Of a stretch of 64,000 bases of DNA, positions 31,654 through 45,615 are shown piece by piece (position 1 is the first letter of the stretch; the number at the start of each line of letters is the position of its first letter). This DNA is from a virus. Both the position numbers and the translations under genes were made by a program. The DNA lies in the IMG/VR virus record IMGVR_UViG_3300033994_001671, positions 1-64,000 of that record, one strand, 5' to 3'. Below the pieces are notes generated by a model. That model made no database searches. It was not told the DNA's origin and saw nothing but the letters and a program-made list of their open reading frames with translations.

Positions 31654-31668
31654 TGTAAAACATTTACA
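31654..31668 (+). promoter_or_regulatory. Short inverted repeat over the start of the glycosyltransferase operon
   Basis: TGTAAA (31654-31659), ACA spacer, TTTACA (31663-31668); the last base is the A of the ATG. The 70-base gap before this operon has no GC-rich hairpin, and contains a TACTTTTTG close to, but one base longer than, the host -7 element. Possible operator; weak. Confidence 0.25.
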
Positions 31669-32912
31669 TGAAAATTTTTATACAAGTTGCCTCTTACAGA
31701 GACCCCCAACTAATCCCAACTATACAGTCAGCATTGGAAAATGCTAAACGACCTGAAAACTTAGTTTTTGGTATTGCTCGTCAGTTTCATCCTGATGATA
31801 ATTTTGATAATTTAGATGAATATAGGAATGATGAAAGATTTAGAATAATCGATATTCCATACACCGAATCCAAAGGAGCTTGTTGGGCAAGAAATCAAAT
31901 ACAACAAGTATATGGTAAGGAAACTTACACTCTTCAAATTGACTCACACATGAGGTTTGCTCAAAATTGGGATGATGAGATGATTAAGATGGTTAAACAA
32001 CTTCAAAAGAAAGGATATAAGAAACCTTTATTAACAGGTTATGTTTCATCCTTTGACCCTGACAATGACCCCAACCTACGTGTTAACGAACCATGGAGAA
32101 TGGCGTTTGATAGATTTATTCCTGAAGGTGCGGTTTTCTTTTTACCTGAAACAATTCCTGGTTGGCAAAATTTAACTGAACCTGTTACCGCAAGATTTTA
32201 CTCGGCTCACTTCTGTTTTACTCTTGGAAAATTTGCTAAAGAAGTTCAACACGACCCTGAGTTTTATTTTCATGGTGAAGAGATTTCAATCGCTGCAAGA
32301 GCATACACTCATGGATATGATTTATTCCACCCACATAAAGTTTTAATTTGGCATGAATATACTCGTAAGGGTAGAACTAAACAATGGGATGACGATAAAC
32401 AATGGGTTGATAAGAATAATTTTGCTCATAAGAAAAATCGTTCTCTATTCGGTATGGATGGTGAGGAAGATATGAATCACGGGAAGTATGGGTTTGGTAA
32501 AGTTAGAACTTTAAGAGATTATGAAAAATATTCAGGTCTTTTATTTTCAAAGAGAGCCGTTCAACAATATACGTTAGATAAAGGTTATCCACCAAATCCA
32601 AATAACTTCAATTCAGAAGAAGAATGGTTAAAGTCATTTACATCGGTATTCAAACATTGTATTGATATTGGGTTTACTCAAGTACCTGAAAAGGATTATG
32701 ACTTTTGGGTTGTTGCGTTCCATAATGAATTAGATGAAACCATTTACAGACAAGATGCTGATAAAGGTGAGGTTGATAGAATGTTAAGAGACCCTGATGG
32801 TTATTGTAAAGTTTGGAGAGAGTTCTTAACTGATTCAAAACCTAAATATTGGGTTGTTTGGCCTCACTCGGAATCTAAAGGATGGTGTGATAGAATAACA
32901 GGAAATTTATAA
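31668..32912 (+). CDS. Glycosyltransferase, GlcNAc-transferase family-like
   Basis: 414-aa protein resembling the Glycosyltransferase (GlcNAc) family, whose eukaryotic members include the cytosolic enzyme that adds GlcNAc to hydroxyproline of Skp1. Visible features: N-terminal strand MKIFIQVASYRDPQL, then ESKGACWARNQIQ, the metal-binding D92-S-H94 (LQIDSHMRF), an HFCFTLGKF segment, and FHGEEISIAARAYTHGYDLF followed by HPHKVLIWHEY. No membrane anchor or signal, so it acts in the cytosol. First gene of a five-gene glycosyltransferase run embedded between fibre genes. Substrate is unknown; virion fibres are the leading inference, with nucleic acid or host glycan as alternatives. Confidence 0.82.
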   Translation: MKIFIQVASYRDPQLIPTIQSALENAKRPENLVFGIARQFHPDDNFDNLDEYRNDERFRIIDIPYTESKGACWARNQIQQVYGKETYTLQIDSHMRFAQNWDDEMIKMVKQLQKKGYKKPLLTGYVSSFDPDNDPNLRVNEPWRMAFDRFIPEGAVFFLPETIPGWQNLTEPVTARFYSAHFCFTLGKFAKEVQHDPEFYFHGEEISIAARAYTHGYDLFHPHKVLIWHEYTRKGRTKQWDDDKQWVDKNNFAHKKNRSLFGMDGEEDMNHGKYGFGKVRTLRDYEKYSGLLFSKRAVQQYTLDKGYPPNPNNFNSEEEWLKSFTSVFKHCIDIGFTQVPEKDYDFWVVAFHNELDETIYRQDADKGEVDRMLRDPDGYCKVWREFLTDSKPKYWVVWPHSESKGWCDRITGNL

Positions 32913-32915
32913 GAT

Positions 32916-33626
32916 ATGAAATTTACATTTGCTACTTTTTGTTTTGGTGAAAGATATTATAACCAAGTTAATAGATTTATTGGTGATATCGTAGAATCGG
33001 ATTATAAAACAAATTTGGTTGTTATTACCGATGACCCAAGTAAGATTAATAATCAAGAATTTGTTCACACTTTCAACATTAATGATTTTAATCCAAATTA
33101 TTTGGAGTATGCTAAAAACTACTATGATTTTGATTTTTCAGTTAAGAGATATTCGTTAAGAGCTGCTTTAAGTATTGGTTTTACTAAAATGATTTTAGTT
33201 GATTGTGATATGAGAGTTAACCCATCTTTCTTTAATGAAGAAAAGATTTTAGGAGCGTTTGATGAGAATTGTTTATCAGGGCCAGTAACATATAATTTTA
33301 ACGAACAAGTTCATACCAATAGTGAATTAGGTAGACGATTACTTGAGTATGAAAAGTATTTCAATCATGAGGTTAATAAAGATAAGTTGGAGGTTATGCC
33401 TGAAGATTGTATCCAATACTTGAGTATTGATGAAGATAAGTTTAATAGTTTTTTAGATACTTGGGACAAGTGTATCGAATATAAAAAAGAAAAAGGTTTG
33501 AGAAACATACCCGCAGGTAACATAGACGAGATGTGTTTCTCGGCGTTATCTAATGGAATTGAAATAAAAAATAACGCTTATAAAGCATCAAATATAATAT
33601 ACGCAGAACATGACAAATGGTACTAA
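32916..33626 (+). CDS. Glycosyltransferase-like protein (GT-A, DxD)
   Basis: 236-aa soluble protein. Strand-helix pattern with a KMILVDCDMRVN segment places a DxD motif at D96/D98, as in GT-A glycosyltransferases that bind nucleotide-sugars through a divalent metal. An ASP-rich VVITDDPSK strand precedes it. The C-terminus contains GNIDEMCFSAL, a position where GT-8/HtrL-like enzymes carry acceptor-site acids. Starts 3 bases after the preceding gene and overlaps the next by 17 bases. Specificity cannot be read from the sequence. Confidence 0.62.
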   Translation: MKFTFATFCFGERYYNQVNRFIGDIVESDYKTNLVVITDDPSKINNQEFVHTFNINDFNPNYLEYAKNYYDFDFSVKRYSLRAALSIGFTKMILVDCDMRVNPSFFNEEKILGAFDENCLSGPVTYNFNEQVHTNSELGRRLLEYEKYFNHEVNKDKLEVMPEDCIQYLSIDEDKFNSFLDTWDKCIEYKKEKGLRNIPAGNIDEMCFSALSNGIEIKNNAYKASNIIYAEHDKWY

Positions 33627-34464
33627 AATAATTTCAGCAATTTATGAATTAAAATATGTTGAAGGGATTAATAGTGAAAGATATAAAAATTTTCCATTAT
33701 TGGTTGCAACGATTAAAAACATAATTTATCCTGAATATCGTTACGTAATTTATACTGACCAAAATTCATATGATAAGTTTAATTTAAAGTATGAATTTAA
33801 TTTCCCAAATGTTGAATTTAAATTTAAAGAATTAAATACATCTGAAACTTGTGAATTAATTGACAGAATTAGAACTCAAGAATTATCAGGTGGAATTAAC
33901 TATGATAGAATTTATTGTGTAAACAATTATTTGGAAGTTGTTTTAAATAAACTTCAATTCTTAATTGATGAGTCACATGATTGTGATAATATCTTTTGGA
34001 TTGATGCTGGTTTGATTGGAACATCTTGTCATGACGGGTGGAGAGATTATATGGCTCCGTTAATTAACTCAAAAAACTTTTTGGATAAGGTGGTTGATAA
34101 GATAAATCAACATGGATTTATCCATTTAAAAGGTAATTCAATTGTCATGAATTATGAAACGGTTGCTAAGTTTAACGACCTATTTGGTGTTGAATTAAAG
34201 GTTGTTCCTGGATGTCTATTTGGTGGAACATCAGAAAAAGTTAGACATATTTTAGACGGATATTTAGACATTTTTAATCAATACTTAACCACACATAACC
34301 AACTTATTAGTGAACAAGAGGTTCTTACGGCTATTACAGGTAAACATTCGGATGAATGTCACGCTTTTGAATTTGGTGATTGGTTAGACTTACAAAAAGC
34401 GTTTTTAGACATTTTAGACATTTATGATGAGACAAAATATGTAAGGGAGAAGTGTTATGTTTAG
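33610..34464 (+). CDS. HtrL/YibB (WlaTC)-like putative glycosyltransferase
   Basis: 284-aa protein resembling the HtrL/YibB/WlaTC family found in surface-polysaccharide loci. Characteristic stretch is NIFWIDAGL (about 128-135, key D132), preceded by a YVIYTD strand and followed by a GGTSEKV loop and SEQEVLTAI. Shares the FWIDAGL motif with the N-terminal half of the 35017 protein, so the two are likely paralogues. No membrane segment. Overlaps both neighbours (17 and 8 bases), showing a tightly coupled operon. Activity is inferred from family context. Confidence 0.65.
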   Translation: MTNGTKIISAIYELKYVEGINSERYKNFPLLVATIKNIIYPEYRYVIYTDQNSYDKFNLKYEFNFPNVEFKFKELNTSETCELIDRIRTQELSGGINYDRIYCVNNYLEVVLNKLQFLIDESHDCDNIFWIDAGLIGTSCHDGWRDYMAPLINSKNFLDKVVDKINQHGFIHLKGNSIVMNYETVAKFNDLFGVELKVVPGCLFGGTSEKVRHILDGYLDIFNQYLTTHNQLISEQEVLTAITGKHSDECHAFEFGDWLDLQKAFLDILDIYDETKYVREKCYV

Positions 34465-35020
34465 TCTTAACATTGTTTGTACTTCAATTGGGAGAGAAAC
34501 TCTACCAAGATTAATTGAGTCATTCAAAGACCAATTAGACCCAACAGATATTTTTACAATAATCTCAGATATTAATCACGACTTTGTTTCAGAAGTATTA
34601 TCAAGATATGAGTTTAAATTCAAAGTTAATCACATATTAAATCAAGGGGAACAAAAATGGAAATACGGACATCCGTTAATTAATGAAAACATTAATTCAT
34701 TAGAAGGTGATTTTATAATGTTTGCCGATGATGATGATAGATACACTGAAGACGCATTTAAAGTAATCAAAGAAACTATTAAAGATAAAAACAAATTATA
34801 CATATTCAAACACAATTGGTTAGGTGATATTAATTGGAGATTAAAAGATTTCACAAGAGGTAATGTAGGGAAATGTATGGGAGTGATTCCAAACACACAT
34901 AATTTACCGATGTTCCAAGAAGATGTTTTTGGGGATGTTATTTTTTATGAAGAGATAGGTCAAATGTTTGAAAGTGAATTTGTTGATTACATAATCTATA
35001 AAGTTAGACATACGGAATGA
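34457..35020 (+). CDS. Family 2-like glycosyltransferase (short)
   Basis: 187-aa GT-A protein: N-terminal strand LNIVCTSIGRETLPRLIES, then GDFIMFADDDDRY with four consecutive Asp (D91-D94) forming the nucleotide-sugar/metal site. It is shorter than usual GT2 enzymes (about 230-300 aa), with little beyond the nucleotide-binding half, so its acceptor domain may be provided by a partner. Overlaps the preceding gene by 8 bases and the next by an ATGA overlap. Confidence 0.72.
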   Translation: MFSLNIVCTSIGRETLPRLIESFKDQLDPTDIFTIISDINHDFVSEVLSRYEFKFKVNHILNQGEQKWKYGHPLINENINSLEGDFIMFADDDDRYTEDAFKVIKETIKDKNKLYIFKHNWLGDINWRLKDFTRGNVGKCMGVIPNTHNLPMFQEDVFGDVIFYEEIGQMFESEFVDYIIYKVRHTE

Positions 35021-36687
35021 GTAATATTACATTAGTTACAGGATTGTGGAATATTGGAAGAGAAAATCTTGAAGAAGGTTGGTCTCGTTCTTTTTCACAT
35101 TATTTAGAAAAATTTGAACAACTATTAAAAGTTGAAGAAAACTTAATAATTTTTGGTGAAAAGGAATTGGAGGAATTTGTTTGGGAAAGAAGAGACCAAA
35201 GTAATACCCAATTTATTTTAAGAGATAAGAGTTGGTTTGTTGAAAATGACTTTTACAATAAAATACAAGAAATTAGAAATAATCCTGAATGGTATAATCA
35301 ATCAGGGTGGTTAAAAGAATCAACACAAGGTAGATTGGAAATATACAATCCACTTGTTATGTCAAAAATGTTTATATTAAATGATGCAAGGATTTTTGAT
35401 AAGTTTAATTCAGAGTTTTTATTTTGGATTGACGCTGGACTTACAAATACTGTTCACCCCGGATATTTCACACATGATAAGGTGTTAGATAATTTAAGTA
35501 AGTATATAGATAAGTTTACATTTGTTTGTTTTCCATACGATGCAAGTAATGAGATACACGGATTTTCATATCCAAAGATTAATCAGTGGGCTGAAGATGA
35601 TGTAAAAAAAGTTGCTCGTGGTGGATTTTTTGGAGGTCCTAAAGAAACCATATCACAGATGAATGGTGAATACTATAACCTATTGAATGATACACTATCA
35701 AGTGGGTACATGGGAACGGAAGAGTCAATATTTTCAATAATGGTTTATAAGTTAAGTGAATACATAAATTATTTTGAAATTGAATATAATGGTTTATTTG
35801 GGAAATTCTTTGAGGATTTAAAAGATGATGTTTTAGTTAAAAAGACAGAGTTTGTTAAAATTCAAAATGATTTAGATATAGATAAAGTTGCGTTGTATGT
35901 AATAACATTCAATTCACCAAAACAATTTGAAACATTAATTAAATCTATGATTGAATATGATAGGGATTTCTTGGAAAAACCAAAGAAATTTTTATTGGAT
36001 AACTCTACAGATTTATCAACAACTGAAGAATACTTAAAACTTTGTAAAGAATATGACTTTGAACATATTAAAAAAGATAACATAGGTATTACAGGTGGAA
36101 GACAATGGACTGCGGAACACTTTGATGAAACGGGGTTGGACTATATGTTATTCTTTGAGGATGATATGTTTTTTTACTCACAAAAAAATGAAGTGTGTAG
36201 AAATGGGTTTAACAGATATGTAAGTAATCTATATCAAAAAAGTTTAGAGATAGTTAACAAAGAAAACTTTGATTTTTTAAAATTAAATTTTTCAGAGTTT
36301 TATGGTGATAATAGTACTCAGTGGAGTTGGTATAATGTTCCACAAAATTTCAGAGAACAACATTGGCCAAAAAATCCAAGATTACCTCAACAGGGTTTAG
36401 ACCCAAATGCTCCAAAAACAAAATTCAACGAGATTAAAACACATAAAGGTTTACCATACGCTTCAGGTGAAATTTATTTGTGTAACTGGCCAATAATCCT
36501 TTCAAAAAGTGGGAGTTATAAATGTTATTTGGAAACAAAATATCAACACCCATATGAACAAACTTTAATGTCTCATAACTTCCAAAACACAATTAAAGGT
36601 AAATTAAAACCAGGTATTTTATTACTCACTCCTACCGAACATGATAGATTTGAACATTATGATAGTAATTTAAGAAAAGAATGTTGA
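35017..36687 (+). CDS. Two-domain putative glycosyltransferase: HtrL-like plus GT2-like
   Basis: 556-aa fusion. The first 270 residues carry LFWIDAGL (about 136-142, D139) and GGPKETISQMNGEYYNLLND, as in the HtrL/YibB-like gene two positions upstream. From about residue 290 a second domain begins (VALYVITFNSPKQFETLIKS), with GITGGRQWTAEHF and an acidic LFFEDDMFF (about 380) as in GT2 enzymes. A bifunctional enzyme could add two sugars in sequence. No signal or membrane segment. Last gene of the glycosyltransferase run; followed by a 29-base gap containing a TATTTAT element and then by fibre genes. Confidence 0.7.
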   Translation: MSNITLVTGLWNIGRENLEEGWSRSFSHYLEKFEQLLKVEENLIIFGEKELEEFVWERRDQSNTQFILRDKSWFVENDFYNKIQEIRNNPEWYNQSGWLKESTQGRLEIYNPLVMSKMFILNDARIFDKFNSEFLFWIDAGLTNTVHPGYFTHDKVLDNLSKYIDKFTFVCFPYDASNEIHGFSYPKINQWAEDDVKKVARGGFFGGPKETISQMNGEYYNLLNDTLSSGYMGTEESIFSIMVYKLSEYINYFEIEYNGLFGKFFEDLKDDVLVKKTEFVKIQNDLDIDKVALYVITFNSPKQFETLIKSMIEYDRDFLEKPKKFLLDNSTDLSTTEEYLKLCKEYDFEHIKKDNIGITGGRQWTAEHFDETGLDYMLFFEDDMFFYSQKNEVCRNGFNRYVSNLYQKSLEIVNKENFDFLKLNFSEFYGDNSTQWSWYNVPQNFREQHWPKNPRLPQQGLDPNAPKTKFNEIKTHKGLPYASGEIYLCNWPIILSKSGSYKCYLETKYQHPYEQTLMSHNFQNTIKGKLKPGILLLTPTEHDRFEHYDSNLRKEC

Positions 36688-36695
36688 TTTTTTGA

Positions 36696-36702
36696 TATTT
36701 AT
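36696..36702 (+). promoter_or_regulatory. TATTTAT element upstream of 36717 gene
   Basis: Exact TATTTAT, 14 bases before the ATG at 36717, in the gap between the glycosyltransferase operon and the next fibre genes. Candidate late promoter core. Confidence 0.45.
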
Positions 36703-36716
36703 TTAAAAAACTATTA

Positions 36717-37085
36717 ATGGAATTTTTTATTAACAAAGGTGCAACACTGCCTGTTCTTAAAATGCAAGTGGTTAAAGATGGTATTGCTGACATAACAGAG
36801 TTTATGTCATTAATAGAAAACTCGTTGATTTATTTTTCCATGATAGATGTTAAAACGGGAGGTTACAAGATTCTGAATAAGAAAGGAGGGTTTGTTGAAA
36901 AGACATTTATTGACCCAAACGCTGAGACAGAGTACTATGTTTATTATAAATTCACTTCAAGCGATACAAGTAGAGAGGGACTTTATGAAGGAGAGTTTGT
37001 TTTTATCACTGATACAGGAACTTATATTTTACCAATCAGAGAAAAACTTACGATAAAAATTGGTAATAGTTACGTATCTATTTAA
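36717..37085 (+). CDS. Small fibre-associated protein, paralogue of next gene's N-terminus
   Basis: 122-aa protein. Its start, MEFFINKGATLPVLKMQVVK, aligns with MEWFIKKNSTLPVFQVEISK of the 37087 gene, and both share a YYVYYKF/YYVNYQF strand and a (T/S)SRE-EGxF segment; it is therefore a free-standing version of that protein's first domain. Beta-rich, no signal. Possibly a fibre connector or cap assembled beneath the longer paralogue. Separated from it by a single base. Confidence 0.72.
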   Translation: MEFFINKGATLPVLKMQVVKDGIADITEFMSLIENSLIYFSMIDVKTGGYKILNKKGGFVEKTFIDPNAETEYYVYYKFTSSDTSREGLYEGEFVFITDTGTYILPIREKLTIKIGNSYVSI

Positions 37086-37086
37086 T

Positions 37087-38295
37087 ATGGAATGGTTTAT
37101 TAAGAAAAATTCAACGTTACCAGTTTTCCAAGTTGAGATATCAAAAGACGGAAGAAGTGATTTTGGTTTAGATGAAAATATTTCGGGTAATACAATTTTA
37201 ATTTCGGTATATGATGAAGTTAATAAGAAATATATTGTAGCGTCTAAAGAATGTTATATTACAACAAGTGCGTCTACTGTTAATCCTTTAGATATTACTT
37301 ATTATGTAAACTATCAATTTACAAGTAGAGAAACTAAAAATGAGGGTAAGTTTTTAGTTCAGTTTTTAAAACAATCATCTCAGGGTATTGTTATTATACC
37401 ATTACCTCAAAAAATTTATGTAAGTGTTCTTAGTAGTTTTAGTTTAAACTCTTACTCTTATCCGACTAATAATCCTTACATTATTGATAGACCATGTTGT
37501 AACGCACCAGCTCTACCTGCAACACCTACACCAACACCATCTATTACTCCAAGTGTTACTCCAACAATGTCTTTAACACCATCACTAACTCCAACTCTCA
37601 CACCTACAACAACTACAACACCTACATTTACTCCTACACCATCTATTACAACACCACAATATTATGCTTATGTATTCGCAGAACCACAAGATTCTTCGGC
37701 AAGTGGTTCGTTGTATGGATTAGGAAGTTATATGTATTACTTATCGGATGGTATAACACCTGATACTAATGTTAATTGGTACGGATGGGGTAACTCGGGA
37801 GCTCTTCCATTACCAACAAATCCAAACTACAGTTATATGATGAACAAATACTCATCATACTCAGGATTTACAGGTGGAACAGGAAACTTTGTTAAACCTA
37901 CAGACTTAAAAGGTGCGTTAAATCAATTCCCAAATACTATCAATGATAGTTTTGGATGTTTAATTAACCAATACACTTTTGAAACAATAGAAGTTAATAA
38001 TAGTGATATTAACACTAGTTTACAGTACATGTATACGATTTGGATACCACTTGATGGTGTCGGAGGAACTTTAAATAATATGAGTGTAAATGTTGGTTAT
38101 CAATCACAACCTTGTGACTTTGATATTTTAGCAACTCCTGACCCTAAAATTTCGGTTGGGGATATTACAATAACTCCAGGTGGAGCGATACCTGCGGGAA
38201 CTTATAGAGTATTATACTTATCAAACGATGGATTGTTACCTCCAAAACTTCCTGATAATAACAATTATTATTTCAAAGGGGTGTATAAAACCTAA
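37087..38295 (+). CDS. Modular fibre protein with Thr-Pro linker
   Basis: 402-aa protein. Residues 1-125 are the domain shared with the 36717 gene; a Cys pair (RPCCNAPA) precedes a Thr/Pro/Ser linker at about 145-190 ([20 protein letters not shown]); residues 193-402 begin YAYVFAEPQDSSAS and match the C-terminal domain of the 25870 protein ([14 protein letters not shown]). The start at 37087, one base after the upstream stop, is preferred over an in-frame start at 37060, because it aligns with the paralogue's MEFF. The protein is thus a recombination of one gene's head with another's tail through a common linker. Likely spike or short fibre. Confidence 0.75.
   Translation: MEWFIKKNSTLPVFQVEISKDGRSDFGLDENISGNTILISVYDEVNKKYIVASKECYITTSASTVNPLDITYYVNYQFTSRETKNEGKFLVQFLKQSSQGIVIIPLPQKIYVSVLSSFSLNSYSYPTNNPYIIDRPCCNAPALPATPTPTPSITPSVTPTMSLTPSLTPTLTPTTTTTPTFTPTPSITTPQYYAYVFAEPQDSSASGSLYGLGSYMYYLSDGITPDTNVNWYGWGNSGALPLPTNPNYSYMMNKYSSYSGFTGGTGNFVKPTDLKGALNQFPNTINDSFGCLINQYTFETIEVNNSDINTSLQYMYTIWIPLDGVGGTLNNMSVNVGYQSQPCDFDILATPDPKISVGDITITPGGAIPAGTYRVLYLSNDGLLPPKLPDNNNYYFKGVYKT
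37519..37659 (+). repeat. Thr-Pro linker coding repeat
   Basis: Low-complexity linker whose order [15 protein letters not shown] repeats that of 26092-26313, while DNA differs at many synonymous positions. Confidence 0.8.
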
Positions 38296-38325
38296 AAAAA
38301 AGATAATTATTAGTAAGTAAAAAAA

Positions 38326-41300
38326 ATGGCAATACCGTATCAAAATCCAATAAGTGCGTCCCAAATTACAGGACCTTTCAGTGTAGCGAGAACAAGTCCA
38401 TACGGAACCAATTTTAATGTTTTAAATGTTGGTGGATGGCAAGAGGCGGCATACCTTACTAATTTAGGTTTAACATTTAGTGGGCAAGGACAACAACAAT
38501 TAAGTGTTAATAATATACCTATTAATATTAACATTGGTAACGGTACATTTTCTCCAACATATTTAACTTTAAATTCTGACAATTTCTCTTCGGGTAGAAG
38601 AAGATTGGGTATGATTGTTTGGGTTAATGAAACTGAAACGGCATATCAATATCAAATAGACAATTACAATGATTTATGGGATGCTGCAGTAAGTGCTAAT
38701 TCTGTAACTCAATTATCTTACGAAACTATTATAAAGAATAATACACCTGAAGGTCAGGCATTTATTAATGCTTGGACAGGCTCAACTATTGAAGGTGTTA
38801 GTGGTGTTACAAGAGAAAATGCGAGATGGAGAGTTTTTGCTCAAGGTACTGAATTAACGGGTGGTACTTATTTTTCAGGTACAAGTACATTAGAATTATA
38901 TAATAGTGATGGAACTATTATTTCTGTAACAGGTATTACGGCATCTGGTTCTAATGGTAGTTCTGGAACATCAGGTTCTGCGGGTACAAGTGGTTCTTCA
39001 GGTAGCTCTGGTTCTTCAGGTTCAGCAGGTACAAGTGGAACTTCAGGTAGTTCTGGTTCATCAGGTAGTTCTGGTTCTGCGGGTACATCAGGAACAAGTG
39101 GAACGTCTGGTTCATCAGGGGATAGCGGTTCTTCGGGAAGTGCTGGAACTAGCGGTAGTTCAGGTAGTGCTGGAACATCAGGTATTAATGGTGTTGATGG
39201 TGCAAGTGGAACATCAGGTACAAGTGGTTCATCAGGACTATCAGGTACTGGAGGTTCTTCGGGTACATCAGGAACATCTGGCTCCTCAGGTTCATCAGGT
39301 TCTTCAGGAAGTGTGGGAACAAGTGGAACGTCAGGTTCTTCGGGAAGTTCTGGTACAAGCGGAACTTCAGGAACTTCAGGTTCAAGTGGTTCATCGGGAA
39401 GTTCAGGTTCAAGTGGTTCATCGGGTACATCAGGTAGTACTGGTACTAGTGGTAGTAGTGGAACAAGCGGAACGTCGGGTTCATCAGGTTCTGCGGGAAG
39501 TAGTGGTTTATCAGGTAGTGTTGGAACATCTGGCTCAAGTGGTAGTTCAGGTAGTTCTGGTTCATCAGGTACATCTGGCTCAAGTGGTAGCTCTGGTTCA
39601 ACAGGTTCGTCAGGTAGTAGTGGTATAACTGGGTCTTCAGGTACGAGTGGTAGTTCTGGCACATCAGGTTCATCTGGTAGTTCAGGTTCTTCAGGTTCAT
39701 CTGGTAGTTCAGGTTCTTCAGGTAGTACTGGTTCATCAGGAACTAGCGGAACATCAGGAACATCAGGTACAAGTGGTAGTTCAGGTTCTACAGGAACATC
39801 GGGTTCTACAGGAACATCGGGTTCATCAGGTAGTAGTGGCTCAAGTGGAAGTTCAGGATTGACAGGTTCATCAGGAACATCGGGTTCATCAGGGACATCG
39901 GGTTCATCAGGTAGTTCTGGTTCAAGTGGTAGTAGCGGAAGTACAGGGTCTTCGGGCACAAGTGGTAGTTCTGGTACATCAGGTTCATCAGGAAGTTCAG
40001 GTTCATCAGGTTCTAGCGGTAGTGTTGGAACTTCGGGAACAAGTGGTTCAAGTGGAAGTTCAGGTTCTTCAGGAAGTGTAGGAACATCAGGTACAAGTGG
40101 AAGTTCAGGTTCGTCTGGCTCAAGTGGAAATACAGGTTCAAGTGGAACGAGTGGTTCATCAGGTACATCTGGCTCAAGTGGTAGTTCAGGTTCGTCTGGC
40201 TCAAGTGGTTCAAGTGGAAGTTCAGGTTCATCTGGAAGTGTAGGAACATCAGGTACAAGTGGTAGTTCAGGTTCTTCAGGTAGTTCAGGTGTTAATGGTT
40301 CTTCAGGGACTAGTGGTAGTTCGGGAACATCTGGTTCTTCAGGAAGTTCGGGTTCATCAGGTTCTAGTGGTAGTTCAGGAACATCTGGCTCAAGCGGGTC
40401 TTCTGGTTCAAGTGGAAGTACTGGTTCTTCAGGAAGTGCAGGTACATCGGGTAGTGTAGGAACTAGCGGTAGTTCTGGTTCATCTGGTTCTTCAGGTAGT
40501 ACTGGCTCAAGTGGTACTTCAGGTTCTTCGGGAAGTTCTGGTACTAGTGGTTCATCAGGTAGTGTAGGTACTAGTGGTTCATCAGGTAGTTCTGGTTCAA
40601 GTGGTAGTAGCGGAAGTACAGGGTCTTCTGGTACAAGTGGGAGCTCAGGAACATCTGGTACAAGCGGTAGTTCTGGGTCATCTGGTTCAGTTGGTACAAG
40701 CGGTTCATCAGGTAGTGTTGGAACATCTGGTTCATCAGGTTCTGTTGGTACTTCAGGAACATCGGGTTCATCAGGTAGTACTGGTTCAAGTGGAAGTTCA
40801 GGAAGTAGTGGTAGTGTAGGAACAAGTGGTTCTTCAGGGACATCTGGCTCAACAGGTACTTCAGGAACATCAGGTTCAAGTGGGTCTTCAGGTAGTTCGG
40901 GTTCATCAGGAAGTTCAGGTACAAGCGGAACATCAGGTTCAGTAGGAACAAGTGGTTCATCGGGAAGTTCAGGGTCAACAGGAACTTCAGGTTCAAGTGG
41001 GTCTTCAGGTAGTTCAGGAAGTAGCGGAACATCTGGTTCTAGTGGAAGTGTTGGAACTTCTGGTACATCAGGAACAAGTGGTTCATCGGGAAGTTCTGGT
41101 TCTGCCGGTACAAGTGGAAGTGTAGGAACAAGTGGTACTTCAGGTTCATCTGGCTCAAGTGGAAGTTCAGGTTCAACAGGTAGTTCAGGTACTAGCGGTT
41201 CATCTGGAAGTTCTGGTTCTGCAGGTACAAGTGGAAGTTCTGGTTCTTCAGGTAGTACGGGTTCAAGAGGAACTAGCGGAACATCAGGAAGTTCTGGTTC

Positions 41301-44300
41301 TGTTGGAACTAGTGGAACGTCTGGTTCAGTAGGAACTAGCGGAACATCTGGAACAAGTGGTTCATCAGGTTCTAGCGGTAGCGCTGGAAGCTCAGGAACG
41401 TCAGGTTCTAGCGGTAGCACAGGTTCAAGTGGTTCTACTGGCACGTCAGGTTCTTCAGGAACAAGTGGTTCTGTAGGTACAAGCGGAACATCTGGTTCCT
41501 CAGGAAGTGTAGGTACTTCAGGTACTAGTGGAAGCTCAGGAAGTGTAGGAACATCTGGTTCAAGTGGTACTACTGGTACCTCAGGAACATCAGGTAGTTC
41601 AGGTTCTAGCGGAAGTTCAGGTTCAAGTGGAACTAGTGGTAGTTCAGGAAGTTCTGGTTCATCGGGTAGTAGCGGTAGTTCTGGTAGTGTAGGAACATCT
41701 GGTTCTTCAGGAAGTTCTGGTTCAAGTGGTTCATCCGGAAGTTCAGGTTCTACAGGTTCAAGAGGAACATCGGGTACTTCAGGAACTAGCGGTTCAAGTG
41801 GAAGTACAGGAACTAGTGGTACATCAGGTTCAACGGGGACTTCAGGAACAAGTGGTTCAACTGGAACATCAGGTACAAGTGGAAGTACAGGGTCTTCAGG
41901 AAGCTCTGGTACGTCGGGTAGTGTAGGTACTAGCGGTAGTTCAGGCTCTAGCGGAAGTACAGGAACTAGTGGAACCTCTGGTTCAACAGGGACTAGCGGT
42001 TCATCAGGTAGTTCAGGTTCAAGTGGAAGTTCAGGTAGTAGTGGTAGCGTTGGAACTTCTGGTACATCAGGTTCAAGTGGTTCTTCAGGAAGTGCAGGTT
42101 CTAGTGGAAGTACTGGAACCTCAGGAACATCAGGTAGTTCTGGTTCTTCAGGTAGTTCAGGTTCAAGTGGTAGTGTTGGAACATCAGGTTCATCGGGTAG
42201 TGTAGGTACTAGCGGTTCTTCTGGTTCAAGTGGAAGTTCAGGTTCTAGCGGAAGTACAGGGTCAAGCGGAACTAGTGGTAATTCAGGTTCGTCTGGTTCA
42301 AGTGGAAGTTCAGGTTCATCTGGAAGTGTAGGAACAAGTGGAACCTCAGGTTCAGTAGGTACAAGTGGTACATCAGGAAGTTCAGGCTCAAGTGGTAGTA
42401 CGGGTTCATCTGGTACTAGCGGCTCTTCGGGAAGTACTGGGTCATCTGGAAGTTCAGGTTCAACAGGAACTAGCGGTTCTTCAGGAACATCAGGTAGTAG
42501 CGGTTCTAGTGGTAGTGCTGGAACAAGTGGTAGTTCTGGTTCTGTTGGTACATCTGGGTCAAGCGGAAGTAGTGGTTCATCGGGAAGTGTAGGCACATCC
42601 GGTTCTTCAGGCTCTAGCGGTAGTGCTGGAAGTTCAGGAAGTGTTGGTACATCAGGGACTAGTGGTAGTTCAGGTTCTTCTGGTTCAAGTGGTAGTGTTG
42701 GTACATCAGGTACTAGCGGTTCATCAGGTACTAGCGGTTCATCAGGGTCAAGCGGAACTAGCGGTAGTTCAGGTTCTAGCGGTTCTTCAGGAAGTTCTGG
42801 GTCATCTGGCTCTTCAGGTAGTACAGGTTCAAGAGGAACTAGCGGTACTTCAGGAACTAGTGGTAGTGTAGGTACATCCGGTTCTTCAGGTAGTTCGGGA
42901 ACATCAGGAAGTAGTGGAAGTTCAGGTTCTGCAGGTACAAGTGGAAGTGTAGGAACATCTGGAACTTCTGGTTCAAGTGGGTCATCAGGTTCAAGTGGTA
43001 GTGTTGGAACTAGCGGGTCATCAGGAACAAGTGGTTCGTCAGGTTCTAGCGGTAGTGCTGGAAGCTCAGGAAGTACTGGTTCATCAGGTTCTGCGGGAAG
43101 TGCTGGTACATCAGGGGTTAATGGTTCTTCAGGAACATCAGGTTCTGCTGGCTCAAGTGGAAGTTCAGGTTCTTCAGGTAGTTCGGGTTCAGTAGGTACA
43201 AGCGGAACTTCAGGTTCATCAGGTAGTGCTGGCTCGTCAGGGTCTAGCGGTTCTGTTGGTACTTCAGGTAGTAGTGGAACATCTGGAAGCTCTGGCTCAA
43301 GTGGTAGTGCGGGTTCATCAGGGAGTAGTGGAACTTCAGGTTCATCAGGAAGTTCAGGTTCAAGTGGTAGTACGGGGTCTTCAGGAAGTTCTGGTTCAAC
43401 AGGTTCTAGAGGAACTAGCGGAACATCAGGTTCATCTGGAAGTGTTGGTACTTCAGGAACGTCAGGTTCAGTAGGTTCGTCTGGTTCTTCAGGAACTTCA
43501 GGTTCAGTAGGTACTAGTGGAACATCTGGAAGCTCTGGCTCAAGTGGTAGTGCGGGGTCATCAGGGAGTACTGGTACAAGTGGAAGTTCGGGTTCAACTG
43601 GTACTTCAGGTTCAAGTGGAAGTAGTGGCTCATCAGGTTCTTCAGGGAGTACTGGTACAAGTGGAACATCAGGTTCTAGTGGAAGTAGTGGTAGTTCAGG
43701 GTCATCTGGTTCTGCAGGTACATCAGGAAGTAGTGGAAGTTCAGGGTCTAGCGGTAGTTCTGGTTCATCAGGTACATCGGGAACTAGCGGAAGTTCAGGA
43801 ACTTCAGGTAGTAGTGGGTCATCAGGTTCAACGGGTAGTTCAGGAAGTAGTGGAACAAGTGGTTCATCTGGTACTTCAGGTTCATCTGGCTCAAGTGGTA
43901 GTACGGGTTCTTCAGGAAGCTCAGGCTCAAGCGGAAGTTCTGGTTCAACAGGTTCTAGAGGAACAAGTGGAACTTCTGGTTCGTCAGGAACTAGCGGAAC
44001 GTCAGGAACATCAGGCTCAAGCGGAAGTGTTGGAACATCTGGTTCGTCAGGAAGTACAGGAACATCAGGTAGTGCTGGTTCTTCTGGCTCAAGTGGTAGT
44101 TCAGGTTCAAGTGGAAGTACTGGAACATCAGGTTCATCAGGTTCTAGCGGTAGTACTGGAAGCTCAGGAACGTCAGGTTCTGTAGGTACAAGCGGGACAT
44201 CAGGAACTTCGGGAAGTACTGGTTCTAGTGGTAGTTCAGGAAGTTCTGGTTCATCGGGTAGTACAGGTACTTCAGGAAGCTCAGGTTCAAGTGGAACTAG

Positions 44301-45615
44301 TGGTTCTTCAGGGTCTAGCGGTTCATCGGGTTCTAGTGGAAGTTCAGGGTCATCTGGTAGTACAGGTTCAAGAGGAACTAGCGGTACTTCAGGAACTAGT
44401 GGTAGCTCAGGAACATCTGGTTCTTCGGGTACATCAGGGTCAGGTGGTTCTTCAGGAAGTAGTGGTAGTTCTGGAACTTCAGGTTCTTCAGGAACAAGCG
44501 GAAGCTCAGGAACATCAGGTTCAAGTGGAAGCACGGGTAGTTCAGGCTCGTCAGGTAATACTGGAAGTTCTGGTACATCGGGTTCTTCGGGTACAAGTGG
44601 TTCTTCTGGGTCATCAGGCTCAAGTGGGAATACTGGTTCTTCGGGAACTTCTGGTTCATCAGGAACTAGCGGTTCTTCAGGAAGTTCAGGTTCAAGTGGT
44701 AATACAGGTTCTTCGGGTACTAGCGGTTCATCAGGTTCTTCTGGCTCATCAGGTTCAAGTGGAAGCTCAGGTTCTTCAGGTATTACAGGAAGTAGTGGAA
44801 CTAGCGGTTCTTCAGGAAGTGCTGGTTCATCAGGTAGCTCAGGTTCAGGTTCATCAGGAACAAGCGGATTAGATGGTATTAGTGGAACATCTGGTTCATC
44901 AGGTACATCTGGCTCAAGTGGTAGCTCTGGTTCAACAGGTTCGTCAGGTAGTAGTGGTATAACTGGGTCTTCAGGTACGAGTGGTAGTTCGGGAACATCA
45001 GGTTCATCGGGAACAAGTGGTTCTAGTGGAAGTTCGGGTTCTTCAGGTAGTTCGGGGTCTAGCGGAAGTACGGGTTCAAGAGGAACAAGTGGTTCATCAG
45101 GCACATCAGGTAGTCAAGGTAATAAAGGTGGTCTTCAATACCAATACGGTGGTGGGACAGGAGGTGCACCTGCTTCAGGTCAATTTACTTATCAAGGAGC
45201 GGGTGTAGCGGTGTATGATTTGAAATTTGACGTAGTAACTGCTGACTCAGCAGATTTAAGTGATTATTTTTTAAACTTAGTTGGAACACAAGGGATTGTA
45301 TATTTAATTTTTAATTTAAATGGTTCAAATAAAATTGATATTTACTACTTCAACAATGTAAGTGTAAGTGGTAGTGATTATTTGTTTACAGGTGCATTAT
45401 ATACAAATGGTGGTGATACAACACTTACAGTAAATGACGTATGTGCAGTTACTATTATTGTTAACGGTACATCTGGAACATCAGGTTCATCAGGTACTTC
45501 AGGTTCATCGGGTATTACTGGTTCATCAGGTACCTCAGGAGCTGCAGGAGCTGCGGGTGGAACATTCACATTAGGACTTGTTTATACAACAGCAAACAAT
45601 TTTAACTTTATATAA
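38326..45615 (+). CDS. Giant collagen-like tail fibre, Ser/Thr-rich and proline-free
   Basis: 2429-aa protein. Residues 1-180 are the N-terminal domain shared with the 26884 fibre (YQNPIS, SGRRRLGM, YQYQIDNY), presumed virion anchor. Residues about 208-2265 are roughly 686 Gly-X-Y triplets in which X and Y are nearly all Ser or Thr (GSS, GTS), with scattered Val, Ala, Leu, Ile, Asn and seven GSRGTSG sites; I see no Pro in the tract. A C-terminal domain follows (about 2270-2390), then a short second GTSGSSG stretch and a terminal TLGLVYTTANNFNFI. Gly at every third residue is the collagen rule, so a trimeric shaft is likely. A 6.2-kb open frame on the opposite strand is a codon-usage shadow. 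Target of the nearby glycosyltransferases is an inference. Confidence 0.88.
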   Translation: MAIPYQNPISASQITGPFSVARTSPYGTNFNVLNVGGWQEAAYLTNLGLTFSGQGQQQLSVNNIPININIGNGTFSPTYLTLNSDNFSSGRRRLGMIVWVNETETAYQYQIDNYNDLWDAAVSANSVTQLSYETIIKNNTPEGQAFINAWTGSTIEGVSGVTRENARWRVFAQGTELTGGTYFSGTSTLELYNSDGTIISVTGITASGSNGSSGTSGSAGTSGSSGSSGSSGSAGTSGTSGSSGSSGSSGSAGTSGTSGTSGSSGDSGSSGSAGTSGSSGSAGTSGINGVDGASGTSGTSGSSGLSGTGGSSGTSGTSGSSGSSGSSGSVGTSGTSGSSGSSGTSGTSGTSGSSGSSGSSGSSGSSGTSGSTGTSGSSGTSGTSGSSGSAGSSGLSGSVGTSGSSGSSGSSGSSGTSGSSGSSGSTGSSGSSGITGSSGTSGSSGTSGSSGSSGSSGSSGSSGSSGSTGSSGTSGTSGTSGTSGSSGSTGTSGSTGTSGSSGSSGSSGSSGLTGSSGTSGSSGTSGSSGSSGSSGSSGSTGSSGTSGSSGTSGSSGSSGSSGSSGSVGTSGTSGSSGSSGSSGSVGTSGTSGSSGSSGSSGNTGSSGTSGSSGTSGSSGSSGSSGSSGSSGSSGSSGSVGTSGTSGSSGSSGSSGVNGSSGTSGSSGTSGSSGSSGSSGSSGSSGTSGSSGSSGSSGSTGSSGSAGTSGSVGTSGSSGSSGSSGSTGSSGTSGSSGSSGTSGSSGSVGTSGSSGSSGSSGSSGSTGSSGTSGSSGTSGTSGSSGSSGSVGTSGSSGSVGTSGSSGSVGTSGTSGSSGSTGSSGSSGSSGSVGTSGSSGTSGSTGTSGTSGSSGSSGSSGSSGSSGTSGTSGSVGTSGSSGSSGSTGTSGSSGSSGSSGSSGTSGSSGSVGTSGTSGTSGSSGSSGSAGTSGSVGTSGTSGSSGSSGSSGSTGSSGTSGSSGSSGSAGTSGSSGSSGSTGSRGTSGTSGSSGSVGTSGTSGSVGTSGTSGTSGSSGSSGSAGSSGTSGSSGSTGSSGSTGTSGSSGTSGSVGTSGTSGSSGSVGTSGTSGSSGSVGTSGSSGTTGTSGTSGSSGSSGSSGSSGTSGSSGSSGSSGSSGSSGSVGTSGSSGSSGSSGSSGSSGSTGSRGTSGTSGTSGSSGSTGTSGTSGSTGTSGTSGSTGTSGTSGSTGSSGSSGTSGSVGTSGSSGSSGSTGTSGTSGSTGTSGSSGSSGSSGSSGSSGSVGTSGTSGSSGSSGSAGSSGSTGTSGTSGSSGSSGSSGSSGSVGTSGSSGSVGTSGSSGSSGSSGSSGSTGSSGTSGNSGSSGSSGSSGSSGSVGTSGTSGSVGTSGTSGSSGSSGSTGSSGTSGSSGSTGSSGSSGSTGTSGSSGTSGSSGSSGSAGTSGSSGSVGTSGSSGSSGSSGSVGTSGSSGSSGSAGSSGSVGTSGTSGSSGSSGSSGSVGTSGTSGSSGTSGSSGSSGTSGSSGSSGSSGSSGSSGSSGSTGSRGTSGTSGTSGSVGTSGSSGSSGTSGSSGSSGSAGTSGSVGTSGTSGSSGSSGSSGSVGTSGSSGTSGSSGSSGSAGSSGSTGSSGSAGSAGTSGVNGSSGTSGSAGSSGSSGSSGSSGSVGTSGTSGSSGSAGSSGSSGSVGTSGSSGTSGSSGSSGSAGSSGSSGTSGSSGSSGSSGSTGSSGSSGSTGSRGTSGTSGSSGSVGTSGTSGSVGSSGSSGTSGSVGTSGTSGSSGSSGSAGSSGSTGTSGSSGSTGTSGSSGSSGSSGSSGSTGTSGTSGSSGSSGSSGSSGSAGTSGSSGSSGSSGSSGSSGTSGTSGSSGTSGSSGSSGSTGSSGSSGTSGSSGTSGSSGSSGSTGSSGSSGSSGSSGSTGSRGTSGTSGSSGTSGTSGTSGSSGSVGTSGSSGSTGTSGSAGSSGSSGSSGSSGSTGTSGSSGSSGSTGSSGTSGSVGTSGTSGTSGSTGSSGSSGSSGSSGSTGTSGSSGSSGTSGSSGSSGSSGSSGSSGSSGSTGSRGTSGTSGTSGSSGTSGSSGTSGSGGSSGSSGSSGTSGSSGTSGSSGTSGSSGSTGSSGSSGNTGSSGTSGSSGTSGSSGSSGSSGNTGSSGTSGSSGTSGSSGSSGSSGNTGSSGTSGSSGSSGSSGSSGSSGSSGITGSSGTSGSSGSAGSSGSSGSGSSGTSGLDGISGTSGSSGTSGSSGSSGSTGSSGSSGITGSSGTSGSSGTSGSSGTSGSSGSSGSSGSSGSSGSTGSRGTSGSSGTSGSQGNKGGLQYQYGGGTGGAPASGQFTYQGAGVAVYDLKFDVVTADSADLSDYFLNLVGTQGIVYLIFNLNGSNKIDIYYFNNVSVSGSDYLFTGALYTNGGDTTLTVNDVCAVTIIVNGTSGTSGSSGTSGSSGITGSSGTSGAAGAAGGTFTLGLVYTTANNFNFI
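39556..39656 (+). repeat. 101-base direct repeat, copy 1
   Basis: Identical over 101 bases to 44890-44990, 5334 bases downstream, in the same codon phase. Encodes a GSTGSSGSSGITGSSGTSG-containing segment. Recombination between copies would remove 1778 codons without frameshift. Confidence 0.9.
44890..44990 (+). repeat. 101-base direct repeat, copy 2
   Basis: Exact partner of 39556-39656. Lies close to the 3' end of the tract, immediately after a GLDGISGTSG interruption also present in the 26884 fibre. Confidence 0.9.

What the first reader, a model, noticed from the sequence alone, without database searches (positions are those of the whole stretch)
31668..45615. Possible fibre self-glycosylation system: glycosyltransferase operon beside giant Ser/Thr fibres
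Seen: five soluble glycosyltransferase-like genes (GlcNAc-transferase-like, GT-A DxD, HtrL-like, GT2-like, and an HtrL+GT2 fusion) form one overlapping operon lying between fibre genes. The neighbouring fibre has about 686 Gly-X-Y triplets where X and Y are almost all Ser or Thr, and Thr/Pro linkers occur in four further fibre genes. Known: the GlcNAc-transferase family includes a cytosolic enzyme acting on a protein (Skp1); phage virions assemble in the cytosol. Inference: the phage enzymes O-glycosylate the fibres, giving a mucin-like coat that could shield, stiffen or mask the virion or help it attach to host glycans.
Basis: partly seen in the sequence, partly recalled or inferred. Interest (0 to 1): 0.85.

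Follow-up and report, generated by a model that had tools for sequence, protein, structure and literature searches.

The report
Phage's swappable fibre-sugar gene cassette
Among its tail-fibre genes this large uncultured phage carries a swappable set of sugar-attaching enzymes that probably decorates its own fibre proteins with varying sugar chains; the giant Ser/Thr fibre beside it does not look like the essential target.

Summary
In detail: five overlapping soluble glycosyltransferase (GT) genes (31668-36687) lie among fibre genes, beside a 2429-aa fibre with 694 Gly-X-Y triplets, mostly Ser/Thr, and genes with Pro/Thr linkers. "The phage glycosylates its own virion" remains the best reading, but the proposed substrate is doubtful. 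Close relatives keep the end genes (GT1, GT5) while those between are replaced exactly at gene borders; 85 non-redundant cassettes show 36 interior arrangements. GT1's model matches mucin-type polypeptide GalNAc-transferases best (Z 20). No interior ORF has a predicted membrane segment (0/480). Giant tract and cassette occur without each other: 36 of 39 sampled tract-bearing contigs lack both end enzymes, and a 294-kb relative has the five genes but no tract. A Pro/Thr-repeat motif tracks the cassette instead: 49/52 records with end enzymes against 12/42 without. A cultured relative with both end enzymes, phage XacN1, has Pro/Thr proteins, no such tract, and at least two reported virion glycoproteins. 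I propose a polymorphic mucin-type O-glycosylation locus acting on Pro/Thr linkers. Host-surface modification is the main rival; DNA modification is unlikely. The acceptor is untested.

The parts
31668..32912 (+). GT1: PF11397 (GlcNAc) glycosyltransferase, left end of the cassette; GT-A fold closest to polypeptide GalNAc-transferases; D92-S93-H94 invariant in 29 sequences
32916..33626 (+). GT2p: soluble GT-A-like protein (DCD motif), cassette interior, absent from L005/L006/L011
   Evidence: no family hit
33610..34464 (+). GT3p: HtrL-like putative glycosyltransferase, cassette interior; its loose cluster is in 73 of 85 non-redundant cassettes
34457..35020 (+). GT4p: short GT2-family (Glycos_transf_2) protein, cassette interior
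32913..35016 (+). swappable interior: DNA 92-95% identical on both sides to L006 and L011, no DNA match between; homology stops at 32915 (L006) or 32912 (L011; GT1 stop codon ends at 32912) and resumes at 35017 (GT5 start codon)
35017..36687 (+). GT5: right end; HtrL_YibB domain (about 1-268) fused to a second GT-A domain (about 285-550)
36717..37085 (+). 122-aa adaptor-like protein; a relative is found in 76 of 85 non-redundant cassette loci
37060..38295 (+). fibre-like protein with adaptor-like N-terminus and a Pro/Thr linker (residues 149-204): candidate O-glycan acceptor
28851..30728 (+). Laminin_G_3 (lectin-like) protein with a Pro/Thr linker (residues 325-399): candidate acceptor
25870..26874 (+). 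334-aa protein with a Pro/Thr linker (residues 71-150): candidate acceptor
54173..56647 (-). 824-aa protein with the most Pro/Thr windows of the 19 genes scanned (162, between residues 75 and 539): candidate acceptor
26884..28881 (+). second collagen-like fibre with a related head
30734..31597 (+). GLEYA/PA14-domain protein just upstream of GT1

Best explanation
The five genes are a polymorphic O-glycosylation locus with which the phage decorates its own tail-fibre and adhesin proteins in the host cytosol. GT1, a polypeptide GlcNAc-transferase-like enzyme, would start the glycan on Thr/Ser (possibly hydroxyproline) in the mucin-like Pro/Thr linkers of fibre proteins. The interior GTs would extend it, and GT5 (two GT-A domains) would extend or cap it. 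Swapping the interior cassette between the two constant genes changes the sugar chain, giving phages that differ in virion glycan much as bacterial strains differ in O-antigen. Shown here: gene content, cassette swapping, predicted fold of GT1, absence of predicted membrane segments, position beside fibre-like genes, and statistical association with Pro/Thr linkers. Inferred: enzyme activity, acceptor, order of action and benefit (masking, protease resistance, stiffening or glycan-mediated attachment).
For: Swap: window against L006 and L011, flanks 92-95% identical, interior replaced at the GT1 stop and GT5 start. 147 loci with both end genes: 480 interior ORFs in 59 clusters, 36 arrangements; 85 non-redundant cassettes. 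66 proteins scanned (59 cluster representatives, 7 from XacN1/RAS14): 44 Pfam families, 25 shown, among them fucosyltransferases, a PLOD-type GT, FkbM methyltransferases, UDP-galactopyranose mutase, UDP-GlcNAc 2-epimerase, DegT aminotransferase, carbamoyltransferase; GT25 in the commonest interior type. 0/480 with a membrane segment, but only 19 of 2033 other ORFs have one. GT1: the first 29 VIA rows are all polypeptide GalNAc-transferases, Z 20.0-16.9, other GT-A enzymes from 16.9 down; D-S-H invariant in 29 sequences including XacN1 and RAS14. CAZy GT60 starts mucin-type O-glycans in protists and Skp1 glycosylation (PMC8724618, PMC6939170 passages). PTPTPT-coding DNA motif: 47/50 records with end enzymes, one reversed-pattern hit in all, 49/52 against 12/42 without, and 31/31 against 3/13 for records of 100 kb or more. 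A Pro/Thr gene lies within 450 bases of the cassette in 7 of 9 large records, 0.21 expected. RaK2, with no GT1/GT5 match, has 0 Pro/Thr ORFs and 0 motifs; XacN1 has 31 motifs. XacN1 virion: at least two glycoproteins reported.
Against: No acceptor is shown. XacN1's glycoproteins are not named in the text I could read. The Pro/Thr association rests on related genomes, many of them fragments, so the p-values are not independent tests. Twelve contigs without GT1/GT5 also have the motif: 6 of 36 tract-bearing contigs and all 6 fibre-head relatives tested. In XacN1 the nearest Pro/Thr ORF is 3.3 kb away and in G015 67 kb; a random-position test of distance gave only a combined p of 0.03. GT1 also occurs without GT5 in the held 10 kb (L033, L037-L039). 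A bacterial GT1 homologue (Jiulongibacter, L339) lies beside genes that look like polysaccharide synthesis. GT-A folds are shared by enzymes with many acceptors: TarS was Foldseek's first hit.
Confidence: 0.5

Rival explanations
1. Host-envelope remodelling: the soluble GTs add sugars to the host's LPS core, capsule precursor or surface glycan during infection, hiding the receptor from competing phages or freeing progeny from debris. The variable cassette follows variation in host surface glycans.
For: GTs in the host-recognition cluster of pelagimyophages are read this way by their authors (PMC7029224 passages). GT25, named by Pfam as LPS biosynthesis, is in the commonest interior type. A Jiulongibacter GT1 homologue sits beside polysaccharide-type genes (judged from their N-termini). 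Cassette swapping fits a target that varies between hosts.
Against: 0/480 interior ORFs carry a predicted membrane segment (the rate elsewhere in the loci is also low), and no flippase, polymerase or lipid-carrier transferase was among the families shown (25 of 44). GT1 resembles polypeptide transferases. Cassettes adjoin fibre-like genes, and XacN1 virions are reported to hold glycoproteins.
Confidence: 0.22
2. One reading: the giant Gly-X-Y fibre rich in Ser/Thr is the main acceptor and becomes a mucin-like, stiffened coat.
For: It lies 1.6 kb from GT5 and is very rich in Ser/Thr. Collagen-type GTs (COLGALT1, LH3) are among Foldseek's hits for GT1 and GT5, and the commonest interior type carries a GT25 enzyme, the family that includes collagen galactosyltransferase (recalled).
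Against: The tract is found without GT1/GT5 in 36 of 39 sampled contigs, 13 of them 100 kb or longer, and behind homologous fibre heads without GT1 in 12 of the 13 contigs L246-L258, those 12 being 25-93 kb fragments. The tract is missing from 28 of 50 records reached through GT1 or GT5, including one with the same five genes (G010). Ser/Thr share is just as high without the enzymes (0.89-0.98 in L249-L254).
Confidence: 0.15
3. DNA modification: the GTs glycosylate hypermodified bases to evade host nucleases.
For: GT5's second domain has weak similarity to TET-associated GTs (PF20691, E 0.03, below cut-off) and to phrog_842, a beta-glucosyl-HMC-alpha-glucosyltransferase (E 5e-5). XacN1 is annotated with a carbamoyltransferase in the cassette, and two of the 66 scanned proteins match that family; such enzymes can act on modified bases (recalled).
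Against: No hydroxymethylase seen: PF00303 in 15 of 50 records, all 8 that I read with the Asn of thymidylate synthase (criterion recalled), XacN1 and RAS14 included; none in G004 and G031, 240-kb contigs of the closest relatives, completeness unknown. Tet_JBP 0/50, though that search had no positive control. XacN1 DNA was digested with BssHII, NaeI and SpeI (PMC5852040 passage). The locus lies among fibre-like genes, not replication genes.
Confidence: 0.06

Closest known systems
Xanthomonas phage XacN1 and Stenotrophomonas phages RAS14/CM1 cassettes (AP018399, OP752703, OP883945)
   Same: Both end enzymes present (GT1 44-47% identity, GT5 40-43%); three genes between them in XacN1 and two in RAS14; giant ORFs nearby; Pro/Thr motif in XacN1 and RAS14. 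In XacN1 at least two virion glycoproteins are reported, and the authors suggest phage GTs as the cause.
   Different: No Gly-X-Y Ser/Thr tract motif in XacN1 or RAS14; the interior genes differ, XacN1's including a carbamoyltransferase; the paper names two GTs (ORF328, ORF334) and does not describe a cassette in the parts I read.
Mycobacteriophage virion glycosylation (Freeman et al. 2023; seen only as cited in PMC12619734)
   Same: Glycans on phage virion proteins; that phage GTs make them is recalled.
   Different: C-termini of capsid and tail-tube subunits there; here fibre linkers are proposed, with a many-gene swappable cassette.
GT60 polypeptide alpha-GlcNAc-transferases (Skp1 Gnt1; Trypanosoma cruzi mucin-type initiator)
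   Same: PF11397 (GlcNAc) match; no membrane segment; fold close to polypeptide GalNAc-transferases; Asp-Ser-His motif. The PF11397-GT60 link is recalled.
   Different: Phage protein of 414 aa; acceptor unknown; no general prolyl hydroxylase partner (PF13640 in 7 of 50 records).
O-antigen-type polymorphic glycan loci of bacteria (recalled)
   Same: Constant ends, exchangeable interior of GTs and sugar-modifying genes.
   Different: No membrane assembly proteins detected; lies in a phage fibre region.
GTs in the host-recognition cluster of pelagimyophages and the core GTs of moraphages (PMC7029224, PMC12619734)
   Same: GTs in large aquatic T4-related phages; in pelagimyophages mixed with tail-fibre genes.
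   Different: Pelagimyophage authors favour host O-chain modification; moraphage authors list DNA, host and virion. No cassette analysis in what I read; I did not test whether the gene families are the same.

Membership tests
PF11397 / GT60-type polypeptide GlcNAc-transferase (GT1) | Sequence match to the family profile | tested here: met
   232 bits against a cut-off of 21; that PF11397 corresponds to CAZy GT60 is recalled
PF11397 / GT60-type polypeptide GlcNAc-transferase (GT1) | GT-A fold close to polypeptide GalNAc-transferases | tested here: met
   VIA Z 20.0, rmsd 3.6, 268 aligned; the first 29 rows are all of this kind; model pLDDT 83.5
PF11397 / GT60-type polypeptide GlcNAc-transferase (GT1) | Asp-X-His metal motif (motif recalled) | tested here: met
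   D92-S93-H94 invariant in 29 sequences
PF11397 / GT60-type polypeptide GlcNAc-transferase (GT1) | Transfer of GlcNAc from UDP-GlcNAc to Ser/Thr or hydroxyproline of a protein | not testable with these tools
   needs enzyme assay
Virus-encoded virion glycosylation | GT genes clustered with virion structural genes | tested here: met
   fibre-like neighbours
Virus-encoded virion glycosylation | Glycosylated virion proteins in a phage with these GTs | tested here: inconclusive
   reported for XacN1 in PMC5852040 text; proteins not named there; supplement not available to me
Virus-encoded virion glycosylation | Loss of glycan when the GT is deleted | not testable with these tools
   needs a mutant
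T4-type DNA glucosylation | Pyrimidine hydroxymethylase (PF00303, Asp variant; criterion recalled) | tested here: not met
   15 of 50 records have PF00303; 8 of 8 read are of thymidylate-synthase type, 7 not read; none in G004 and G031. Records may be incomplete
T4-type DNA glucosylation | TET/JBP base oxygenase as alternative source of the hydroxyl | tested here: inconclusive
   0 of 50, but no control genome rang
GtrABC-type O-antigen seroconversion | Membrane GtrA/GtrB/Gtr proteins | tested here: not met
   0 of 480 interior ORFs, and none of the window's five, has a 19-residue segment of mean hydropathy 1.8 or more
Polymorphic glycan locus (O-antigen-like organisation) | Constant flanks with replaced interior | tested here: met
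   22 of 50 records reached through GT1 or GT5 have the tract; 36 of 39 sampled tract contigs lack GT1 and GT5

The most novel reading that the evidence does not exclude
A widespread group of large phages has a mucin-type O-glycosylation pathway of its own. A polypeptide-GalNAc-transferase-like starter enzyme acts on Pro/Thr linkers of fibres, and a cassette exchanged by recombination between two constant genes writes a variable glycan, so that these phages have glyco-serotypes at the virion surface that switch independently of their receptor-binding domains.
Probability: 0.4. Interest if true: 0.82.

Novelty: new variant of a known kind. Interest (0 to 1): 0.62.

Why it matters
In the phage papers read here, glycosyltransferases are mostly assigned to DNA or host LPS. 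Here a widespread group of large phages keeps a starter enzyme resembling those that begin mucin-type glycans, next to fibre-like proteins with mucin-like linkers, and exchanges the extension genes as a block. If the glycan is on the virion, phage surfaces would vary in sugar as well as in protein, which would affect adsorption, neutralisation and how structures and proteomes of such phages are read. The question can be tested now: virion mass-spectrometry data for a relative were deposited (PXD008065), and the published search listed no sugar modification.

Tried and rejected
Giant tract as the obligate partner: rejected as a rule. Skp1-like route through hydroxyproline: a PF13640 oxygenase is in only 7 of 50 records, so not general. 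DNA modification: see rivals. Sequence search of solved structures gave nothing for GT1, neither with the single protein nor with the profile, and one weak unrelated hit for GT5; only fold comparison helped. GT2p is not detectably related to GT5. GT5's whole-chain matches to LH3, LARGE1 and mimivirus R699 have rmsd of 17-25 A, so I do not read them as function; each half matches generic GT-A enzymes at Z 12.7-15.2. A first distance test with random positions was weak (nine records, combined p 0.03; G021 dropped as a near-duplicate of G022); the adjacency test was chosen afterwards, so treat its p-value as descriptive. No near DNA match in the phage collection; the adaptor had no match there. 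Bacterial GT1 homologues, 25 loci: read for neighbours in six only; the GC-rich ones gave unreliable ORF calls and are not used. Pfam's GT9 hit among the 66 scanned proteins is not counted as cassette content, because XacN1 ORF328, annotated as family 9 and lying outside the GT1-GT5 interval, was in that set. Papers: the eight searches showed no report of a swappable fibre-linked GT cassette in listings or in the passages read; the library lacks most subscription papers.
Full report
WHAT IS THERE. The window is 64 kb of a 75-kb virus record. Its genes are those of a T4-like phage: UvsX-type recombinase, DnaB-type helicase, ribonucleotide reductase, baseplate wedge and SbcCD homologues. Five genes on the + strand, 31668-36687, overlap or nearly touch. 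GT1 matches PF11397 far above its cut-off. GT2p has no family hit but keeps two Asp of a DxD-type motif in nine sequences. GT3p is HtrL-like by profile comparison with GT5. GT4p is a short GT2-family protein. GT5 joins an HtrL_YibB domain to a second GT-A domain. Downstream come a 122-aa adaptor-like gene, a Pro/Thr fibre-like gene and the giant collagen-like fibre; upstream are a GLEYA/PA14 protein, a Laminin_G_3 protein with a Pro/Thr linker, and a second collagen-like fibre.

THE OPERON IS A SWAPPABLE CASSETTE. GT1 and GT5 searches of viral contigs found 400 and 566 relatives, of which the best 80 each were kept. Of 161 loci, 147 hold both; five have GT1 without GT5 (the window's own short locus, L033 and L037-L039). 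In the 147 the gap between GT1 and GT5 holds 480 ORFs in 59 clusters and 36 arrangements. After removal of near-identical copies 85 cassettes remain, with 1 to 13 interior genes and still 36 arrangements; the HtrL-like interior cluster is in 73 and an adaptor relative in 76. Against L006 the window is 94.6% identical up to base 32915, just past the GT1 stop codon at 32912, and again from base 35017, the GT5 start codon. Against L011 identity (92%) ends at 32912 and resumes at 35017. Between these points the genes differ: a gene of the GT25-like cluster and an HtrL-like gene stand in place of GT2p-GT4p. That is block exchange at gene borders between close relatives.

WHAT THE CASSETTE GENES DO. 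One representative of each of the 59 interior clusters and 7 XacN1/RAS14 genes (two of them outside the GT1-GT5 interval) were scanned: 44 Pfam families matched, 25 shown, without telling which protein matched which. They include FkbM and other methyltransferases, DegT aminotransferase, carbamoyltransferase, fucosyltransferase families 10 and 11, UDP-galactopyranose mutase, UDP-GlcNAc 2-epimerase, PLOD-type and sugar-binding DXD transferases. Ten proteins scanned singly added GT25 and a galactosyltransferase-type domain. This is the content of a glycan-building and glycan-decorating locus. None of the 480 interior ORFs has a hydrophobic segment by a simple hydropathy test, but only 19 of 2033 other ORFs do, so this is modest evidence against a seroconversion system with membrane parts. 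It does not exclude soluble enzymes acting on LPS core.

GT1 LOOKS LIKE A POLYPEPTIDE O-GLYCOSYLATION ENZYME. The AlphaFold2 model (27 sequences, pLDDT 83.5) was compared with the PDB. Foldseek's first hit is TarS; polypeptide GalNAc-transferases make up most of its top list, with COLGALT1, RmlT and chondroitin polymerase among the rest. In the VIA comparison the first 29 rows are all polypeptide GalNAc-transferases, Z 20.0 to 16.9, and other GT-A enzymes follow from 16.9 down. PDB redundancy inflates the number of rows but not the top Z, and the margin is about 3 units. Asp92-Ser93-His94 is invariant in 29 sequences, XacN1 and RAS14 included; that such enzymes use an Asp-X-His metal motif is recalled. 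Passages of PMC8724618 and PMC6939170 place in CAZy GT60 the starter enzymes of mucin-type glycans in protists and of Skp1 glycosylation. The link between PF11397 and GT60 is recalled.

THE GIANT TRACT IS NOT THE PARTNER. Tracts were counted as runs of eight or more Gly-X-Y triplets. They are in the held DNA of 32 of 161 loci (19 of 90 long ones), and Pro/Thr linkers in 133 of 161 (80 of 90); after removing copies, 12 and 73 of 85. In 50 whole records reached through GT1 or GT5 a DNA motif for Gly-Ser/Thr triplets is present in 22; XacN1 and RAS14 have none. G010, a 294-kb contig, has GT1-GT5 in the window's order at 67-83% identity and no tract. From those 80 I took 39 contigs of 38 kb or more, leaving out two that also qualified (L372, L419) and the 40 unlisted loci. 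GT1 and GT5 are present in the same three (G027, already known, G070 and G101) and absent from 36. All 13 of 100 kb or more lack both. Homologues of the giant fibre's head carry Gly-X-Y tracts without GT1 in 12 of the 13 contigs L246-L258; these 12 are 25-93 kb fragments and L257's tract is only 11 triplets.

PRO/THR LINKERS TRACK THE CASSETTE. A DNA motif for Pro-Thr-Pro-Thr-Pro-Thr is present in 47 of the 50 records; the reversed pattern hit once in all of them. Three of the 50 were reached by GT1 with no GT5 in the held 10 kb (L033, L037, L039). The comparison set of 44 records was taken because they carry the tract or the fibre head; 42 lack GT1 and GT5. Of these 42, 12 have the motif: 6 of 36 tract contigs and 6 of 6 fibre-head relatives; the other two records have both enzymes and motif; the reversed pattern hit five times. 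Together 49/52 against 12/42, and 31/31 against 3/13 for records of 100 kb or more. In the loci measured, phages with the enzymes are lower in GC (0.29-0.38 in 22 loci against 0.31-0.49 in 13), so composition does not favour the C-rich motif. In nine large records read in pieces, a Pro/Thr gene lies within 450 bases of the cassette in seven, against 0.21 expected from gene-anchored intervals; in G031 and G010 the small adaptor gene lies between. XacN1 and G015 are the exceptions. RaK2, of the clade with which XacN1's authors compare it, has no GT1/GT5 match, no Pro/Thr ORF and no motif. XacN1 has 31 motifs and 16 Pro/Thr ORF pieces in 320 kb, at least one gene being split at a piece border; several lie beside tail-sheath and structural genes. 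These genomes are related and some records are near-copies (G021/G022, for example), so the counts are descriptive.

THE CULTURED RELATIVE. XacN1 carries GT1 (ORF334) and GT5 (ORF330) with a carbamoyltransferase and two more genes between them; a 9.9-kb ORF ends 3.2 kb beyond the GT5 end and a baseplate wedge gene adjoins that ORF. Its paper (passages and the structural-protein section read) reports at least two virion glycoproteins, no visible tail fibres, and suggests that phage GTs may have made the glycoproteins. The idea that these enzymes glycosylate virions is therefore already in print for a homologue. The raw data were deposited, and the published search listed no sugar.

ALTERNATIVES. 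Host-surface modification is the serious rival: authors of the pelagimyophage study read GTs in the host-recognition cluster so (PMC7029224 passages), and one bacterial GT1 homologue lies beside polysaccharide-type genes. DNA modification is disfavoured: of 15 records with PF00303, all eight proteins read are of thymidylate-synthase type, two 240-kb contigs of close relatives have no PF00303, and XacN1 DNA was digested with three restriction enzymes. Tet_JBP was absent from 50 of 50 records, without a positive control. The moraphage paper (passages and one section read) lists DNA, host and virion as possible targets of its four core GTs.

VERDICT. Observation confirmed; interpretation partly supported. 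I commit to a polymorphic O-glycosylation locus acting on fibre proteins, Pro/Thr linkers first, at about 0.5. Shown: cassette anatomy and exchange, predicted fold and motif of GT1, absence of predicted membrane segments, and association with Pro/Thr linkers. Inferred: catalysis, acceptor, glycan structure and benefit.

Noticed in passing
38326-45615 and L479 (G031): The giant fibre varies greatly in length: 2429 aa and 694 triplets in the window, 4766 aa and 1422 triplets in a relative with a 98% identical head and a near-identical C-terminus. If triple-helical (0.286 nm per residue, recalled) these tracts would be about 0.6 and 1.2 micrometres long.
   Followed up: partly
38868-45104, - strand: A 2078-aa antisense ORF of Pro/Leu/Glu/Asp/Val repeats lies opposite the giant fibre; probably an artefact of the Gly/Ser/Thr codon pattern.
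   Followed up: no
L246-L254: A fibre-head homologue with a Ser/Thr-rich Gly-X-Y tract follows a relative of the window's Pro/Thr fibre gene, with no GT1 or GT5 before it; L254's fibre is at least 3337 aa and open at the contig end.
   Followed up: partly
L339, 4943-15142: Jiulongibacter sediminis carries a GT1 homologue (54%) next to genes that look like UDP-glucose dehydrogenase, an epimerase-type SDR, a carbamoyltransferase and an FkbM-type protein, judged from their N-termini only.
   Followed up: partly
L347 and L357: Burkholderiales isolates carry GT1 homologues (40-41%); a VgrG-like ORF (both) and a PAAR-like ORF (L347) appear nearby, judged from N-termini only, with doubtful ORF calls.
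   Followed up: no
54173-56647, - strand: An 824-aa minus-strand gene in a window whose other convincing long genes are on +; Pro/Thr-rich stretches between residues 75 and 539.
   Followed up: no
L487 (XacN1), record positions 124048-133104: Six adjacent XacN1 ORFs (232-237) all carry Pro/Thr linkers, three of them about 435 aa long; they may be a tandem family, homology not tested.
   Followed up: no
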